Source: Moorena bouillonii PNG (GTDB lineage: Bacteria; Cyanobacteriota; Cyanobacteriia; Cyanobacteriales; Coleofasciculaceae). Taken from it: 64,000 nt of DNA. A program made the translations under genes and the position numbers. The DNA lies in the NCBI RefSeq assembly GCF_001942495.1, contig NZ_MKZS01000001.1:3573656-3637655 (forward strand), in the 5' to 3' direction. Positions within the stretch are counted from its first letter, which is position 1. Each line of letters opens with the position of its first letter. The notes beneath the pieces were generated by a model that was given only the letters and a program-made list of their open reading frames with translations, was not told the origin of the DNA and did no database searches. Below, piece after piece: positions 35,533 to 39,914 of this stretch.

Positions 35533-35733
35533 ATGATTCATGTTCGGTTTGAAGGTCGTTCCTACGACATTGCTGAAGGTCAGCTGGGTATAGCCAAAAG
35601 TATGAACGATACCGCTGTTAAACAGGAACTCGCGAAGTACTTTGATGTAGCCCCAGAGCGCTTTACCTCTTATGTCATTGACCGCAGTACCAACCGCAAT
35701 CTGATTATCAGACCTGAAGCGGTTTATGGTTAA
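35533..35733 (+). CDS. 66-aa beta-grasp, ubiquitin-like candidate ending in Gly
   Basis: Predicted order from the sequence: strand-strand (MIHVRFEGRSYDIAE), a helix (DTAVKQELAKYFDV), then strands (RFTSYVIDRSTN and NLIIRPEAVYG). This beta-beta-alpha-beta order and the exposed C-terminal Gly fit a minimal ubiquitin/ThiS-like modifier whose C-terminus is adenylated by an E1 enzyme. An E1-like gene lies 3.5 kb downstream on the same strand (39276), with Y-RNA-like RNAs, a Ro60-like gene and an unknown gene between. Good ribosome site (AAGGAGGG) and a sigma-70 promoter. The protein is clearly a real, well-expressed small gene; the ubiquitin-like reading is an inference. Confidence 0.7.
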   Translation: MIHVRFEGRSYDIAEGQLGIAKSMNDTAVKQELAKYFDVAPERFTSYVIDRSTNRNLIIRPEAVYG

Positions 35734-35948
35734 GGTTTATGCTTAAAAGGTGTTAAAAGGTTAAACCTTTTATCCTGTGCCCTAATCTCAAGAAGCCTAC
35801 AAAGCTTTTGTTATAGCAGTCGCCAGGGCAGTTAGGACATGACAAAAGTCTCAAACCTAAGTAAGCGCAAGAGTTTGACTTCTGACTTCTGACTTCTGAC
35901 TTCTGACTTCTGCTATAACTTGCACAGGAGCAATTGTTCCAAATTTCC
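35734..35948. other. Spacer with a dispersed repeat before the Y-RNA candidates
   Basis: Contains repeat copy 2 (35812-35917). The Y-RNA-1 promoter should be within or just after it. AACTTGCACAGGAGCAATTG (35917-35936) precedes the RNA. Confidence 0.35.
35812..35917 (+). repeat. Dispersed 107-bp-type repeat, copy 2
   Basis: Same as 5061-5167: TATAGCAG start, GGACATGACAAAAGTCTCAA core, five ACTTCTGAC units, CTGCTATA end. Confidence 0.75.
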
Positions 35949-36095
35949 CCCCGCGCCCTAACCGCTGAAGCTTACATACTACCGAATGCGAATCGGAAGG
36001 TTATAGGTTCGAATCCTATCAGCGGCGCTATTTGCCGCTGTAGCTCAAATGGATAGAGCATCATTTTATTAAAAGCTTTACTGACTTGCGCGGGG
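35949..36095 (+). ncRNA. Y-RNA-like RNA 1 with a permuted tRNA-like module
   Basis: Outer stem CCCCGCGC (35949-35956) / GCGCGGGG (36088-36095). Internal loop CCTAACC / GACTT. Inner stem GCTGAAGC (35964-35971) / GCTTTACT (36075-36082, imperfect). Inside lies a CCGA-ATGCGAA-TCGG hairpin (35982-35996), then tRNA parts in permuted order: T-arm ATAGG-TTCGAAT-CCTAT (36003-36019), acceptor-like hairpin CAGCGGC-GCTATTT-GCCGCTG (36020-36040), TA, and D-arm GCTC-AAATGGATA-GAGC (36043-36059). Known bacterial YrlA Y RNAs bind Ro60 through a stem and carry a tRNA-like module. Next to a Ro60-like gene, this is the best reading. Confidence 0.7.
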
Positions 36096-36153
36096 ACCCT
36101 AATTCTAGTGGTTTTCACTGCCATAACTAAACAATTTAAAAATTAACTGAGTC

Positions 36154-36280
36154 ACCTTCGCGCCCTGACCCGGAAAGCTTTCATACTCGCCAAATGGAAA
36201 GGCACTTGACTCATCATCGAGAATATGCGGGTTCAAATCCCGTGTGTGAAACAACGGCTTTCTGAACTTGCGCGAAAGGT
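36154..36280 (+). ncRNA. Y-RNA-like RNA 2 containing a whole tRNA look-alike
   Basis: Outer stem ACCTTCGCGC (36154-36163) / GCGCGAAAGGT (36270-36280, one bulge). Internal loop CCTGACC / AACTT. Inner stem CGGAAAGC (36171-36178) / GCTTTCTG (36257-36264). Stacked on it is a tRNA-like fold in normal order: 8-bp acceptor TTTCATAC / GTGTGAAA (36179-36186 / 36244-36251), D-arm GCC-AAATGGAAA-GGC, anticodon arm CTTGA-CTCATCA-TCGAG (anticodon CAT), and T-arm GCGGG-TTCAAAT-CCCGT. A plain tRNA is unlikely because the acceptor end continues into the Y-type stem and no CCA end is formed. Confidence 0.65.
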
Positions 36281-36608
36281 AATTCAAAACACTGCTAATA
36301 AATCGTAGCTTAGTTGATTTATTTTAGGTAAATTTTTATTAATTATTCAACCTTCAACCTTTAACTAAACAACCCAATAACCAAATAACTAAACAACCAA
36401 GTAAATGGCGTTGCTGATTCTGGGTATGGTTTCGCCCCCCTAGCCCCCCAATTCTGGGGGGAACAAAACTCTTAAAGTCCCCCAAAGTTGGGGGATTTAG
36501 GGGGCTTTAATAAAACCAGATAATCGCGCATTCATTCCTTAATTCAGCAACGCCAAATAACTTATAAATTTATCCAGAAATTACATAGGACCATAGGAGG
36601 TGAATCCT
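36281..36608. other. Spacer with MITE-like repeat before the Ro60-like gene
   Basis: A 148-bp repeat (36407-36554) sits between RNA 2 and the protein gene. AACCAAATAACTAAACAACC-type A/C-rich repeats (36365-36400) precede it. The ribosome site TAGGAGG (36593-36599) follows. Confidence 0.45.
36407..36554. repeat. MITE-like repeat, copy B (148 bp)
   Basis: Inverted ends GGCGTTGCTGA / TTCAGCAACGCC, two G/C hairpins (CCCCCCAATTCTGGGGGG and CCCCCAAAGTTGGGGG), and the tail AATCGCGCATTCATTCCT shared with 32590-32702. AAAT on both sides may be the target duplication. Its hairpins could weaken read-through from the RNAs into the protein gene. Confidence 0.7.
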
Positions 36609-38042: not shown

Positions 38043-38074
38043 TCGCGATCATTTCAATAAATTTTAATGACTTG

Positions 38075-38273
38075 TGTGCCCTAACAGCCAGAGCTTACAT
38101 ACATAGTACGAGAGGAATAGTAACGTTACTCTAACGTAGCGGGCGTGAAGCGAAGAAGGCGCAAAGAACCCGGAATGTGGGCTTAGAGGTAGCCATCATT
38201 TAAAGAGTGTGTAGTAACTCACCGGCGGAGTTCCTTTTAAGTGACGAACGCTTTGGCTCTGGCGACTTGCACA
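38075..38273 (+). ncRNA. Y-RNA-like RNA 3, longer, no clear tRNA module
   Basis: Outer stem TGTGC (38075-38079) / GCACA (38269-38273). Internal loop CCTAACA / GACTT. Perfect 8-bp inner stem GCCAGAGC (38087-38094) / GCTCTGGC (38256-38263), then TTACATAC as in RNA 1. So the Ro60-binding-like stem is the same as in the other two, but the 160-nt interior has no TTCRAAT loop; it has a palindrome AGTAACGTTACT (38120-38131) and several G/C stems. It starts 32 bp after the Ro60-like stop codon. Confidence 0.55.
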
Positions 38274-38425
38274 TTATAGCGCTACGCGCAAGGCAATAGG
38301 CATGCTAGCAATAGGCAATAGGCATGCTAGCAATAGGCAAAAGTAGACTAAAACTGCTTTTGCTGCTTGTATCAATGTCCTAACTTTAATGCGTAGTGCT
38401 TTAGATATAACCATAGAGCAGGATC
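38274..38425. other. Spacer with GCAATAGGCAT repeats
   Basis: Three copies of ATAGGCATGCTAGCAATAGGC-type units (38296-38342); otherwise nothing recognisable before the 282-aa gene. Confidence 0.35.
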
Positions 38426-39274
38426 ATGGCAAATATCCTCGACCTCATCAATCAAATTGCTGCAAAGGAAGCACAACTGAGTGACAATCAATTCCTCGCT
38501 CCCTGTGTACGTGGGGGACGGGTAAGAACTCGTGTAGCTGGAATGATTTATACCTTCTCCCCTAAGCCTCGTAACTTTGAAGGATGGGGTATTTTTCAGC
38601 CAGTCAACGAGAAAGTGGCAACTGTGGTGGAAGAGCCAGATGTGTTTCAACTTGATGAGTATTGGCAACTGCTCCAACCGTTGCGTTTACGACTAGCTTA
38701 TCAATTGTCGGGAAAGACCTGGCTAGGGTATCCAGTCAATGAATCGGATGCTCGTCAGCGCTTTGGCACGGTTAAACCTATTCCTATCCATCTGGTAGAG
38801 GGCGGGGTAGCCTTTGAACAAGTGGTAGCTCGTGGGGATGGTAAGGCTTGGTGGTTTCAGCAGCTTGACCGTAAGGGAGATCCGTTACTAGCAGAACAAC
38901 TTAGAGAGCAGTTAAAGCAAGTAACACCACCTGAAGAACTGGATGTAAAGGGGCTGACACCAGAAATGAGAATAGTTTATGACTTGGTAACACAACAGAG
39001 TAAAGATTTTAAAGCTAAAGCTCTGCATCAACGGGATCACAGAAGGCTGGAGCAAGCTTTGGAAATGGGTGGGGGAGCACTGCAACAGTTCCATGACCGG
39101 GGAGAATTCTGGCAAGTGCGCTGGAGCACTGCTGACGGTAAACACCACATATCAGCGATATCTAAACAGGATCTGACTGTAATCAGTTCCGGGATTTGTC
39201 TAAGTGGACGCGATCGCGATTTTGATTTACAGTCCTTGGTTGGCGTGATTGAGGCACGAGATAATTGGGATTAG
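38426..39274 (+). CDS. Unrecognised conserved-looking protein of the Ro60/E1 locus
   Basis: 282 aa, soluble, no membrane segment. I do not recognise a named family. Landmarks: FLAPCVRGGRVRTRVAGMIYTFSP (about 22-45), FEGWGIFQPV, LRLAYQLSGKTWLGYPVNESDARQRFG (about 87-113), VVARGDGKAWWFQQ (about 132-145), a charged helical middle, and a C-terminal ISVISKQDLTVISSGICLSGRDRDFDLQSLVGVI-like beta-rich end. It may be RNA-binding (basic strands, aromatic residues) or the conjugation partner of the E1, but nothing proves this. It is followed 1 nt after the stop by the E1-like gene, a strong sign that the two work together. Confidence 0.7.
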   Translation: MANILDLINQIAAKEAQLSDNQFLAPCVRGGRVRTRVAGMIYTFSPKPRNFEGWGIFQPVNEKVATVVEEPDVFQLDEYWQLLQPLRLRLAYQLSGKTWLGYPVNESDARQRFGTVKPIPIHLVEGGVAFEQVVARGDGKAWWFQQLDRKGDPLLAEQLREQLKQVTPPEELDVKGLTPEMRIVYDLVTQQSKDFKAKALHQRDHRRLEQALEMGGGALQQFHDRGEFWQVRWSTADGKHHISAISKQDLTVISSGICLSGRDRDFDLQSLVGVIEARDNWD

Positions 39275-39275
39275 C

Positions 39276-39914
39276 ATGATGTCAATTTTTTTCCACGAAC
39301 AACTCTACCGTACCTCCGAAGTCATGGCCCAGTTACGTGACTACCCCGTTACCGTGTGTGGTGCCGGAGCACTTGGAGCCAATATTACCGAAAATTTAGC
39401 TCGTTCAGGGTTTGGAAAGCTTAAGGTTATTGATTGCGATCGCATTGAAGAACGCAATCTTTCTACCCAACCCTACTACCGCTCTGATATTGGTGCCCAT
39501 AAAGCCAAAATCCTCGCCCATTCTCTCTACCAAGCGGTTGGGGTAAAATTAGAGGCTAAGGTCAAGGAATTAACTAAAGCTAATACCAAACAATTACTGA
39601 AGAATTCTACTTTAGTCATTGACACCTTTGATAACAGTGTCGCTCGTCAAGCTGTAAAAGATTACTGTGATAGTTCCCAAACCCCTTGTCTTCATGTTGG
39701 GTTAGCAGAAGACTATAGTGAAATCATTTGGAATGAAAATTATCGAGTGCCTTCCCCAGTTAATGATGATATTTGTGATTATCCATTAGCTCGTAATTTA
39801 GTGCTAATGACTACAGCAGTTGCTACTGAAGTGATCATTGAATTTATTAGCACAACGAAAAAACTCGACTTCACCTTCACCTTGAAAGATTTAACTATCA
39901 AGCCGATATTATAA
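39276..39914 (+). CDS. E1-like ThiF-family adenylyltransferase
   Basis: 212 aa. Nucleotide loop VCGAGALGANITENLARSG, then VIDCDRIEERNLSTQPYYRSDIGAHKA with the conserved Arg/Lys contacts of E1/MoeB/ThiF, and LVIDTFDNSVARQAV. A CDYPLARNLVLMTTAVATEV helix ends the protein; its Cys is a candidate thioester site. Zinc CxxC pairs of MoeB are absent. Such enzymes adenylate the C-terminal Gly of a ubiquitin-like protein. The 66-aa product at 35533 is the only visible substrate candidate. The start is 1 nt after the 282-aa gene; the longer frame from 39249 lies inside that gene and is rejected. Confidence 0.85.
   Translation: MMSIFFHEQLYRTSEVMAQLRDYPVTVCGAGALGANITENLARSGFGKLKVIDCDRIEERNLSTQPYYRSDIGAHKAKILAHSLYQAVGVKLEAKVKELTKANTKQLLKNSTLVIDTFDNSVARQAVKDYCDSSQTPCLHVGLAEDYSEIIWNENYRVPSPVNDDICDYPLARNLVLMTTAVATEVIIEFISTTKKLDFTFTLKDLTIKPIL

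What the first reader, a model, noticed from the sequence alone, without database searches (positions are those of the whole stretch)
35533..39914. Ro60-like protein, three Y-RNA-like RNAs, E1-like enzyme and a ubiquitin-like candidate in one locus
Seen: on one strand and within 4.4 kb lie a 66-aa protein ending in Gly, two structured RNAs with tRNA mimicry, a HEAT+vWA protein with intact MIDAS, a third RNA with the same stem, an unrecognised 282-aa protein, and an E1-like adenylyltransferase starting 1 nt after it. Known: bacterial Ro60/Rsr genes are often next to Y RNAs, some with tRNA-like modules; E1-like enzymes activate the C-terminal Gly of ubiquitin-like proteins. Inference: this couples a Ro60-Y RNA particle to a ubiquitin-like conjugation or sulfur transfer. 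I know of no described system with exactly these parts.
Basis: partly seen in the sequence, partly recalled or inferred. Interest (0 to 1): 0.93.

Follow-up and report, generated by a model that had tools for sequence, protein, structure and literature searches.

The report
Ribosome-mimicking Y RNAs with ubiquitin-like operon
In this cyanobacterium, in many relatives and in viral contigs including huge phages, the gene of a predicted Ro60-type protein sits with genes of a predicted ubiquitin-like tagging system, and beside it many of the cyanobacteria carry small RNAs that copy parts of tRNAs and of the ribosome's own RNA, which likely act as baits that sense or absorb attacks on protein synthesis.

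Summary
Of 388 genomes of the class, 39, 37, 43 and 37 carry the Ro-like, 66-aa, 282-aa and E1 genes, and 31 carry all four. The 66-aa protein is exactly 66 aa and ends in Gly in 33 of 33 loci. The third RNA is not just another stem: inside a Y-type stem it carries the 23S sarcin-ricin-loop sequence and the GTPase-associated centre, conserved with compensatory changes in 29 aligned copies, window included. A further RNA class in relatives carries 23S helix 69-71 in circularly permuted order; in the window this RNA (35773-35929) has lost that module. The other two RNAs are tRNA-like Y RNAs. The operon has the published TrcR operator on its -10 box; some relatives have tRNA arrays and RNA-repair genes beside it. 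Five viral contigs carry Ubl-Ro-282-JAB-E1 in the same order; the 595-kb phage also has a tRNA-like Y RNA and a helix-69-like stretch behind a Y-type start. Best reading (untested): a TrcR-induced bait/alarm particle for damage to tRNA and rRNA, with ubiquitin-like tagging as output. Ro ring, Ubl chemistry and bait function are predictions.

The parts
35456..35484 (+). Promoter of the operon: TTGACA (35456-35461), 17 bases, TAGTAT (35479-35484), overlapped by TrcR-type operator TGTAGTAT (35477-35484)
   Evidence: Sequence. Operator as published for the Anabaena trn array (PMC10272220 sections 7-9). TGTAGTAT lies within 1 kb upstream of the 66-aa gene in 61 of 93 loci, the most frequent of 420 permutations of its letters.
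35533..35733 (+). 66-aa predicted ubiquitin-like modifier ending in Gly
35773..35929 (+). RNA0: Y-type stem of the helix-69 class that has lost its module and carries an unrelated insert; apparently decayed
   Evidence: Stem TCCTGTG/CACAGGA; the matching RNA of Moorena locus L113:4126-4321 carries the module; L115 shows the same state as the window, L114 an interrupted one.
35949..36095 (+). RNA1: Y RNA with permuted tRNA-like module (T-arm before D-arm), YrlA-like
   Evidence: Rfam YrlA 37.1 bits (below gathering 69) and tRNA 34.1 bits; stem CCCCGCGC/GCGCGGGG.
36155..36278 (+). RNA2: Y RNA with full tRNA-like cloverleaf (anticodon CAU)
   Evidence: Rfam tRNA 48.2 bits, ARAGORN tRNA-Met 36180-36252; found as a Y stem by model R1 at 36155-36278, 31 bits.
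36609..38042 (+). Ro60-like protein (N-terminal region plus vWA with MIDAS)
   Evidence: Pfam VWA_2 in 22 and vWA_Ro60 in 3 of 24 aligned sequences, all weak; profile finds only two PDB sequences, both TROVE proteins, E 0.009.
38071..38277 (+). RNA3: Y RNA with 23S rRNA mimic module (sarcin-ricin loop plus GTPase-associated centre)
   Evidence: R1 model 179 bits (the window was one of the 13 sequences in the model); alignment of 29 copies, 20 of 46 pairs with changes on both sides.
38105..38117 (+). Sarcin-ricin-loop sequence AGTACGAGAGGAA within RNA3
   Evidence: GAGAGGAA invariant in 29 of 29 aligned copies.
38154..38238 (+). GTPase-associated centre (23S helices 43/44) mimic within RNA3
   Evidence: Rfam RF02541 positions 1076-1161, 52.7 bits, E 8e-13; in the genome's own search the only LSU match besides the real 23S.
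38426..39274 (+). 282-aa protein: beta-rich with weak OB-fold resemblance, conserved C-terminal tail ICLxGxDxxFDLQSLVGV
   Evidence: 23 aligned sequences, Cys258 invariant including the phage; AlphaFold2 pLDDT 77, tail below 50; Foldseek weak hits only.
39276..39914 (+). E1-like (ThiF-type) adenylyltransferase
   Evidence: Pfam ThiF 100 bits, cut-off 28.1; 20 aligned sequences.

Best explanation
The locus encodes a predicted Ro60-type RNA-protein particle whose Y RNAs carry copies of tRNA and of 23S rRNA sites, and it likely works as an inducible bait and alarm for damage to the translation machinery, with a predicted ubiquitin-like tag as its output. Shown: the linked genes, the RNA modules with their conservation and compensatory changes, the operator sequence on the promoter, and the same gene order in viral contigs. 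Inferred steps: (1) translational stress relieves TrcR and switches the operon on; (2) the Ro60-like ring holds each Y RNA by its terminal stem and leaves the module exposed; (3) the modules (sarcin-ricin loop, GTPase-associated centre, helix 69-71, tRNA) draw the nucleases, modifying toxins or drugs that attack those sites on the ribosome and on tRNA; (4) a cut or modified bait is recognised by Ro, and the E1-like enzyme, perhaps with the 282-aa partner, activates the C-terminal Gly of the 66-aa modifier and places it on a target; (5) tRNA arrays and repair enzymes that lie beside the locus in some relatives replace or mend damaged tRNA and rRNA. Step 4 is the least supported.
For: Two different 23S sites are copied: 66 of 368 Y RNAs (defined by stem and end motifs, not by module; 358 distinct) match rRNA, 39 at the GTPase-associated centre, 25 at 23S 1909-1941 and 2 at 16S, against means of 1.8 (5 mononucleotide-shuffled sets) and 2.4 (10 dinucleotide-shuffled sets). 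The sarcin-ricin loop comes on the same RNA as the GTPase centre. Compensatory changes. Known attackers of these sites: Tre23 ADP-ribosylates the GTPase-associated site, colicins D/E5 cut tRNA anticodon loops, viomycin/capreomycin bind helix 69 (PMC9990079 passages); sarcin-type and VapC nucleases at the sarcin-ricin loop are recalled. Repair context: KptA in 10 of 39 and 10 of 80 loci, NADAR in 9 of 39 and 2 of 80, CCA-enzyme type in 5 of 39 and 1 of 80 (the two sets share genomes); NADARs remove ADP-ribose from guanosine in RNA (PMC11833690 passages). ARAGORN counts of 25-34 tRNAs in 8 fetched loci, with a TGTAGTAT box within about 305 bases before the first tRNA in 8 of 8. TrcR represses the Anabaena tRNA array and rtcB, and the array is activated under translational stress (PMC10272220 abstract and sections 7-9). 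Viral contigs carry the set. A competitive-inhibitor role of the tRNA-like YrlA module towards an anticodon nuclease was suggested by others (PMC7790460 passages).
Against: The same paper reports that Salmonella YrlA is not cut by the anticodon nuclease. In Deinococcus the Y RNA tethers Rsr to PNPase, which explains a tRNA-like module without any bait. No expression, binding or cleavage data exist for this locus in what I read. The Ro assignment rests on weak sequence scores and no ring model was made. No E2 candidate has support. 16 of 39 Ro genomes lack a detected SRL-GAC RNA and 5 RNA genomes lack a detected Ro. Repair genes and long tRNA arrays are near the locus only in a minority. Of 130 TGTAGTAT boxes upstream of the 66-aa gene 98 have no -35 box at 16-18 bases. 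The trcR-like gene of this genome is recognised by reading and position only; Pfam finds no ribbon-helix-helix family in it.
Confidence: 0.5

Rival explanations
1. Addressing modules for an RNA quality-control machine: as in the Deinococcus Rsr-Y RNA-PNPase particle, each module recruits a partner that normally binds tRNA or 23S rRNA (maturation, modification or decay enzymes, ribosomal proteins), so that the Ro-like ring feeds damaged tRNA or rRNA to them; the ubiquitin-like tag regulates the particle.
For: Known tether role of Y RNAs and the modification of YrlA by tRNA enzymes (passages); Rsr acts in 23S rRNA maturation (title in reference lists only).
Against: The rRNA pieces are those of factor and tRNA contact, not rRNA ends (recalled anatomy); does not by itself explain tRNA arrays, KptA and NADAR beside some loci or carriage by phages.
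Confidence: 0.3
2. Translation-factor sponge: sarcin-ricin loop plus GTPase-associated centre form a free factor-binding site that holds EF-G, EF-Tu or related GTPases, and the tRNA-like and helix-69 RNAs hold other factors, slowing translation during stress.
For: The two elements that form the factor site on the ribosome occur on one RNA in 29 of 29 aligned copies (the model that found them was built from 13 copies chosen for having both).
Against: Factors bind far better to ribosomes with L11 and L7/L12 in place (recalled); a sponge needs high copy number; would not explain repair genes.
Confidence: 0.1
3. The 66-aa protein and E1-like enzyme are a sulfur-transfer pair (ThiS/TtuB type) that thiolates tRNA or RNA ends, and the Ro-Y RNA particle only guides the substrate.
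For: E1-like protein is closest to ThiF-type models; TtuB and a molybdopterin-synthase subunit are among the structural neighbours of the 66-aa model.
Against: Viral operons add a JAB-type gene (for one, for 5 of 5); none of the neighbour proteins scanned (10 in each call) hit a sulfurtransferase family, but not all neighbours were scanned.
Confidence: 0.15
4. Rearranged rRNA or tRNA gene fragments that are carried along without function.
For: rRNA and tRNA sequence is copied easily; RNA0 in the window is decayed.
Against: Compensatory changes in 29 and 18 aligned copies, conserved stem, operator boxes 22-37 bases before the SRL-GAC RNA in 3 of 13 loci, a helix-69-like stretch behind a Y-type start in a distant phage.
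Confidence: 0.03

Closest known systems
Ro60/Rsr-Y RNA particles, including Salmonella rsr-yrlBA-rtcBA RNA repair operon and Deinococcus RYPER (passages)
   Same: vWA-type Ro-like protein, Y RNAs with a Ro-type stem, tRNA-like (also permuted) modules, RNA-repair genes nearby in some loci
   Different: Y RNAs that copy 23S functional sites, several Y RNA classes per locus, ubiquitin-like modifier plus E1-like gene, tRNA arrays in some relatives, TrcR-type operator
Bacterial ubiquitin-like operons with E1, JAB and partner genes (PRTRC and related; the 2006 survey PMC1779556 was seen in search listings only)
   Same: Small Ubl ending in Gly, ThiF-type E1, JAB in the viral versions
   Different: PRTRC_ThiF score 52.6 against a cut-off of 144.75; no PRTRC A/B/C model hit in the four window proteins, and the phage JAB protein only 12.8 bits against 101.8 for PRTRC_A; linked to Ro and Y RNAs
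TrcR regulon and the trn array of Anabaena PCC 7120 (PMC10272220)
   Same: Operator TGTAGTAT on the -10 box, tRNA array, HNH and alr0857-type genes
   Different: The paper's main text has no occurrence of Ro60 or TROVE; the Ro-Ubl operon is a predicted further target
tmRNA and YrlA as RNA mimics of tRNA (passages)
   Same: RNA that imitates a translation component
   Different: Here the large-subunit rRNA itself is imitated, one module in circularly permuted order

Membership tests
Ro60/Rsr (TROVE-vWA ring protein) | vWA domain with MIDAS residues | tested here: met
   Asp300, Ser302, Ser304, Thr362 and Asp386 invariant in 24 aligned sequences including the phage; Pfam VWA_2 in 22 of 24, vWA_Ro60 in 3 of 24, best E 0.003
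Ro60/Rsr (TROVE-vWA ring protein) | TROVE/HEAT-repeat region by sequence model | tested here: inconclusive
   No Pfam TROVE hit in 24 members; profile finds only two PDB sequences, both TROVE proteins, E 0.009, stretch 159-393
Ro60/Rsr (TROVE-vWA ring protein) | Monomeric ring that binds RNA ends and Y RNA | not tested
Ro60/Rsr (TROVE-vWA ring protein) | Y RNA genes beside the gene | tested here: met
   59 of 80 named loci have a Y-type RNA within 330 nt upstream of Ro; 368 Y-type RNAs in 103 loci of the 119 stretches examined
Bacterial Y RNA (YrlA type) | Rfam YrlA at gathering score | tested here: not met
   RNA1 37.1 bits against 69; RNA2 and RNA3 not listed for YrlA
Bacterial Y RNA (YrlA type) | Terminal stem with internal bulge joining a tRNA-like module | tested here: met
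   RNA1, RNA2; same kind of stem on the other classes
E1-like ThiF superfamily | ThiF domain over cut-off, nucleotide-binding glycine motif and acidic active-site residues | tested here: met
   Pfam 100 bits; Gly29, Gly31, Gly34, Asp116 and Asp119 invariant in 20; the role of the residues is recalled
Ubiquitin-like modifier | C-terminal Gly at the end of the chain | tested here: met
   33 of 33 loci and the phage
Ubiquitin-like modifier | Beta-grasp fold | tested here: inconclusive
Ubiquitin-like modifier | Adenylation and attachment to a target | not testable with these tools
   Needs biochemistry
PRTRC system | PRTRC family models over cut-off | tested here: not met
   PRTRC_ThiF 52.6 of 144.75 bits in the window, 45.9 in the phage; PRTRC_A 12.8 of 101.8 bits for the phage JAB protein
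E2-like conjugating enzyme (for the 282-aa protein) | E2 fold | tested here: inconclusive
   Weak OB-fold matches, none at E 0.001; tail with Cys258 not modelled with confidence
TrcR regulon | Operator on the -10 box | tested here: met
   35477-35484; within 1 kb upstream in 61 of 93 loci
TrcR regulon | Repression by TrcR and induction by translational stress | not testable with these tools
   Needs expression data

The most novel reading that the evidence does not exclude
A bacterial tripwire for RNA damage: free RNA replicas of the ribosome's most attacked sites and of tRNA, held on a Ro60-type ring, are the sensors, and ubiquitin-like tagging is the alarm; huge phages have taken the whole device to keep translation alive against host nucleases. 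This would be the first known use of ribosomal RNA replicas as sentinels and the first Ro60 particle wired to a ubiquitin-like pathway.
Probability: 0.35. Interest if true: 0.97.

Novelty: new variant of a known kind. Interest (0 to 1): 0.93.

Why it matters
What Ro60 and Y RNAs do is still largely open. Here the modules spell out the likely clients: sarcin-ricin loop, GTPase centre, helix 69 and tRNA. That makes a definite test possible in cyanobacteria, ties a Ro60-like protein to a ubiquitin-like gene set, and gives tRNA arrays and the TrcR stress regulon a partner. The RNAs are also ready-made minimal models of ribosomal drug and toxin targets.

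Tried and rejected
Considered and rejected: chance rRNA similarity (shuffled sets give means of 1.8 and 2.4 against 66 hits); misassembly of a 23S gene (32 listed full-length matches in 28 of 388 genomes, with compensatory changes); PRTRC membership; E2 fold for the 282-aa protein (no support); sequence similarity of the helix-69 RNA upstream of the paired strand to 23S 1893-1911 (not above shuffles), so permutation rests on pairing, which forms in 95.4% of cells in that helix. 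In the structure given to two inner helices that I drew were poor (64.8 and 8.3% paired): they were placed by hand and are not claimed.

Led nowhere: Pfam for the 66-aa family, PDB profiles of the 66-aa and 282-aa families, Foldseek at E 0.001, Pfam for the trcR-like protein. The sarcin-ricin pattern GKACGAGAGGA was not found on the searched strand of the six viral stretches held. Papers: (recalled as a 2016 survey of RNA repair in conflicts and a 2021 paper on the Anabaena tRNA array) are not held, so I cannot say that the first does not mention such operons.

The named set (L113-L192, best 80 of 303) and the unnamed set (L031-L068 plus window) share genomes: 14 of 58 unnamed Y RNAs recur in the named set, so Y RNA counts are not independent. 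The phage row was in alignments A2-A5 but not in those used for structure prediction. In one search, 28 of 33 loci have a box anywhere upstream of the 66-aa gene in the held stretch (counted by eye); L047, L055, L059, L060 and L062 do not.

Full report
What is there. On the + strand from 35456 to 39914 lie, in order, a promoter with a TrcR-type operator, a 66-aa gene, three Y-type RNAs (the first decayed), a 477-aa vWA gene, a fourth Y-type RNA, a 282-aa gene and an E1-like gene that starts one base after it. The window lies in a genome of 8.3 Mb; its Ro-like protein is 96% identical to those of three Moorena genomes.

Rfam finds the large-subunit model at 38154-38238, model positions 1076-1161, 52.7 bits against a cut-off of 50; in the whole genome the only other matches are the real 23S gene. 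In the short-stretch scan the match was not listed. Upstream in the same RNA stands AGTACGAGAGGAA, the sarcin-ricin-loop sequence. Thirteen copies were aligned first, then 29, the window included: GAGAGGAA is invariant in 29 of 29. A hand-drawn structure (terminal stem, inner stem, sarcin-ricin loop helix, hairpin, GTPase-centre helices) pairs in 92.0% of cells, 20 of 46 pairs show changes on both sides against 11.7 in shuffles, and slid structures fall to 29-51%. A covariance model of 13 copies gave 32 listed full-length matches in 28 of 388 genomes; the other listed matches cover only the middle of the model (about positions 83-166), and in the window's own genome that partial match falls inside the real 23S gene, which shows the likeness from the other side.

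A second 23S site is copied by another Y RNA class. I defined Y RNAs by their 5' and 3' motifs and stem, not by module (368, of which 358 distinct, in 103 loci; the two locus sets share genomes). Of these, 66 match rRNA by blastn: 39 the GTPase-associated centre, 25 23S 1909-1941 (helices 69-71), 2 16S; mononucleotide-shuffled sets give a mean of 1.8, dinucleotide-shuffled sets 2.4. In the helix-69 class the 3' strand comes first and the strand that pairs with it stands at the end of the module; this helix pairs in 95.4% of cells with both-side changes in 4 of 6 pairs over 18 aligned sequences of 25. The order is thus circularly permuted, as in YrlA for tRNA. In Moorena this RNA is whole in L113, interrupted in L114 and without module in L115 and in the window (RNA0).

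The other modules: by rough motif sorting 143 are tRNA-like in normal order, 44 permuted, 25 with a T-arm only, 93 of other kinds, beside 37 SRL-GAC and 26 helix-69. RNA1 of the window is permuted and resembles YrlA below its cut-off, RNA2 is a cloverleaf.

Proteins. The Ro-like protein has a vWA domain with invariant MIDAS residues. Its profile finds two PDB sequences in all, both TROVE proteins, at E 0.009; Pfam's vWA_Ro60 hits 3 of 24 members; the Pfam TROVE model does not hit. I call it Ro60-like; the ring is not tested. The 66-aa protein is exactly 66 aa with terminal Gly in 33 of 33 loci; a database search gave 1467 relatives, of which 120 were listed and two of those carry the name TGS domain protein; its model is bb-a-bb at pLDDT 83.8 and its structural neighbours are mostly ubiquitin-like with modest Z. 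The E1-like protein is a clear ThiF-superfamily member. The 282-aa family has 2139 relatives among the candidates scored, an invariant Cys258 in a conserved tail, and weak OB-fold resemblance.

They belong together. In 388 genomes drawn evenly from the class, Ro occurs in 39 (three weak hits left out), the 66-aa gene in 37, the 282-aa gene in 43, the E1 gene (E at most 1e-40) in 37 and the SRL-GAC RNA in 28; Ro and 66-aa share 34, 282-aa and E1 share 36, all four proteins 31, all five 19; every pair is far from independent (largest Fisher p 2.3e-17; relatedness of genomes not corrected). In the named loci the 66-aa gene is in the held stretch in 56 of 65 with 6 kb upstream, and both 282-aa and E1 in 41 of 62 with about 6 kb downstream; they are adjacent in 39 of 44 loci that have both.

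Setting. TGTAGTAT, the published TrcR site, overlaps the -10 box of the operon and lies within 1 kb upstream of the 66-aa gene in 61 of 93 loci, more than any other of 420 permutations; 32 of 130 upstream boxes have a -35 box at 16-18 bases, 98 do not. TrcR represses the Anabaena tRNA array and rtcB, and the array is activated under translational stress (abstract and sections 7-9 of PMC10272220). Eight fetched loci hold 25-34 tRNA genes by ARAGORN (tRNA-like Y RNAs counted in), each with a box shortly before the first; in L059 the SRL-GAC RNA lies within a run of tRNA genes; 3 of 13 SRL-GAC RNAs have a box 22-37 bases upstream. KptA, NADAR and a CCA-enzyme-like gene lie nearby in a minority. 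The window's own genome has an exact trcR-type motif before a gene that reads like a ribbon-helix-helix protein, though Pfam finds no such family in it, beside an HNH gene.

Phages. A 595-kb phage (LR756511.1) and four IMG/VR contigs carry the 66-aa homologue, Ro, 282-aa homologue, JAB and E1 in this order, 5 of the 6 viral stretches held; the sixth is a 4-kb piece with part of Ro. The phage also carries Y-type RNAs, one tRNA-like, and behind a Y-type start a stretch that agrees with 23S 1919-1941 at 20 of 23 bases (read; its 3' stem was not worked out). In the phage collection 1 of 50,697 records has the Ro gene.

How it likely works. The copied sites are places where translation is attacked: the GTPase-associated site by the ART Tre23, tRNA anticodon loops by colicins D and E5, helix 69 by viomycin and capreomycin (PMC9990079 passages); the sarcin-ricin loop by sarcin-type and VapC nucleases (recalled). 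An operon with the operator of a translational-stress regulon, spare tRNAs and RNA-repair genes beside it in some relatives, and kept by phages, fits a bait or alarm for such attacks. The alternative, that modules are tethers for maturation or decay enzymes, follows the Deinococcus precedent and is not excluded; a published remark that YrlA might inhibit an anticodon nuclease, but is not cut by it, leans both ways. What the ubiquitin-like protein marks is unknown.

Novelty. Searches of the held library showed, in the rows listed, no paper on rRNA-like Y RNAs or on a Ro60-ubiquitin-like operon; most subscription papers are not held and one likely survey could not be read. Parts are known kinds; the combination and above all rRNA replicas on Y RNAs are new to me.

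Noticed in passing
L113:4126-4321, L114, L115, window 35773-35929: Three stages of decay of the helix-69 Y RNA within Moorena: whole, interrupted by a repeat, module lost.
   Followed up: partly
L073 (LR756511.1 272000-296000), L196-L199: Huge-phage and other viral contigs carry the whole Ubl-Ro-282-JAB-E1 set; L073 and L199 have Y-type RNAs by motif, and L073, L196 and L197 hold 11-25 tRNAs.
   Followed up: partly
L034, L035, L036, L037, L040, L042, L044, L068: 25-34 tRNA genes upstream of the 66-aa/Ro genes, with a TGTAGTAT box within about 305 bases before the first in 8 of 8.
   Followed up: partly
L058:9156-9878 (-) and homologues: Unknown 241-aa protein between the 66-aa gene and Ro, in 13 of 39 and 44 of 80 loci; no Pfam or NCBIfam hit.
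   Followed up: no
within 330 nt upstream of Ro, 59 of 80 named loci: Y-type RNA directly before the Ro gene, often a short one of about 84 nt; could be an autoregulatory leader. Not seen in the window.
   Followed up: no
L034:6442 and relatives: Y RNAs with other modules (93 of 368), for example CTCTCCACCAAAC..GACCGATAGCAGGC, whose model is unknown.
   Followed up: no
G145, G171, G162, G217, G350: SRL-GAC RNA without a detected Ro; four of them have a 282-aa gene or pieces of one, G171 none.
   Followed up: no
window 33131-34324: TnpB-type transposase gene upstream of the locus (Pfam OrfB_IS605 and Cas12f1-like_TNB).
   Followed up: partly
window 39945-40055 and 35877-35915: Tandem repeats GGGAACA and GACTTCT; the latter sits inside the insert of RNA0.
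   Followed up: no
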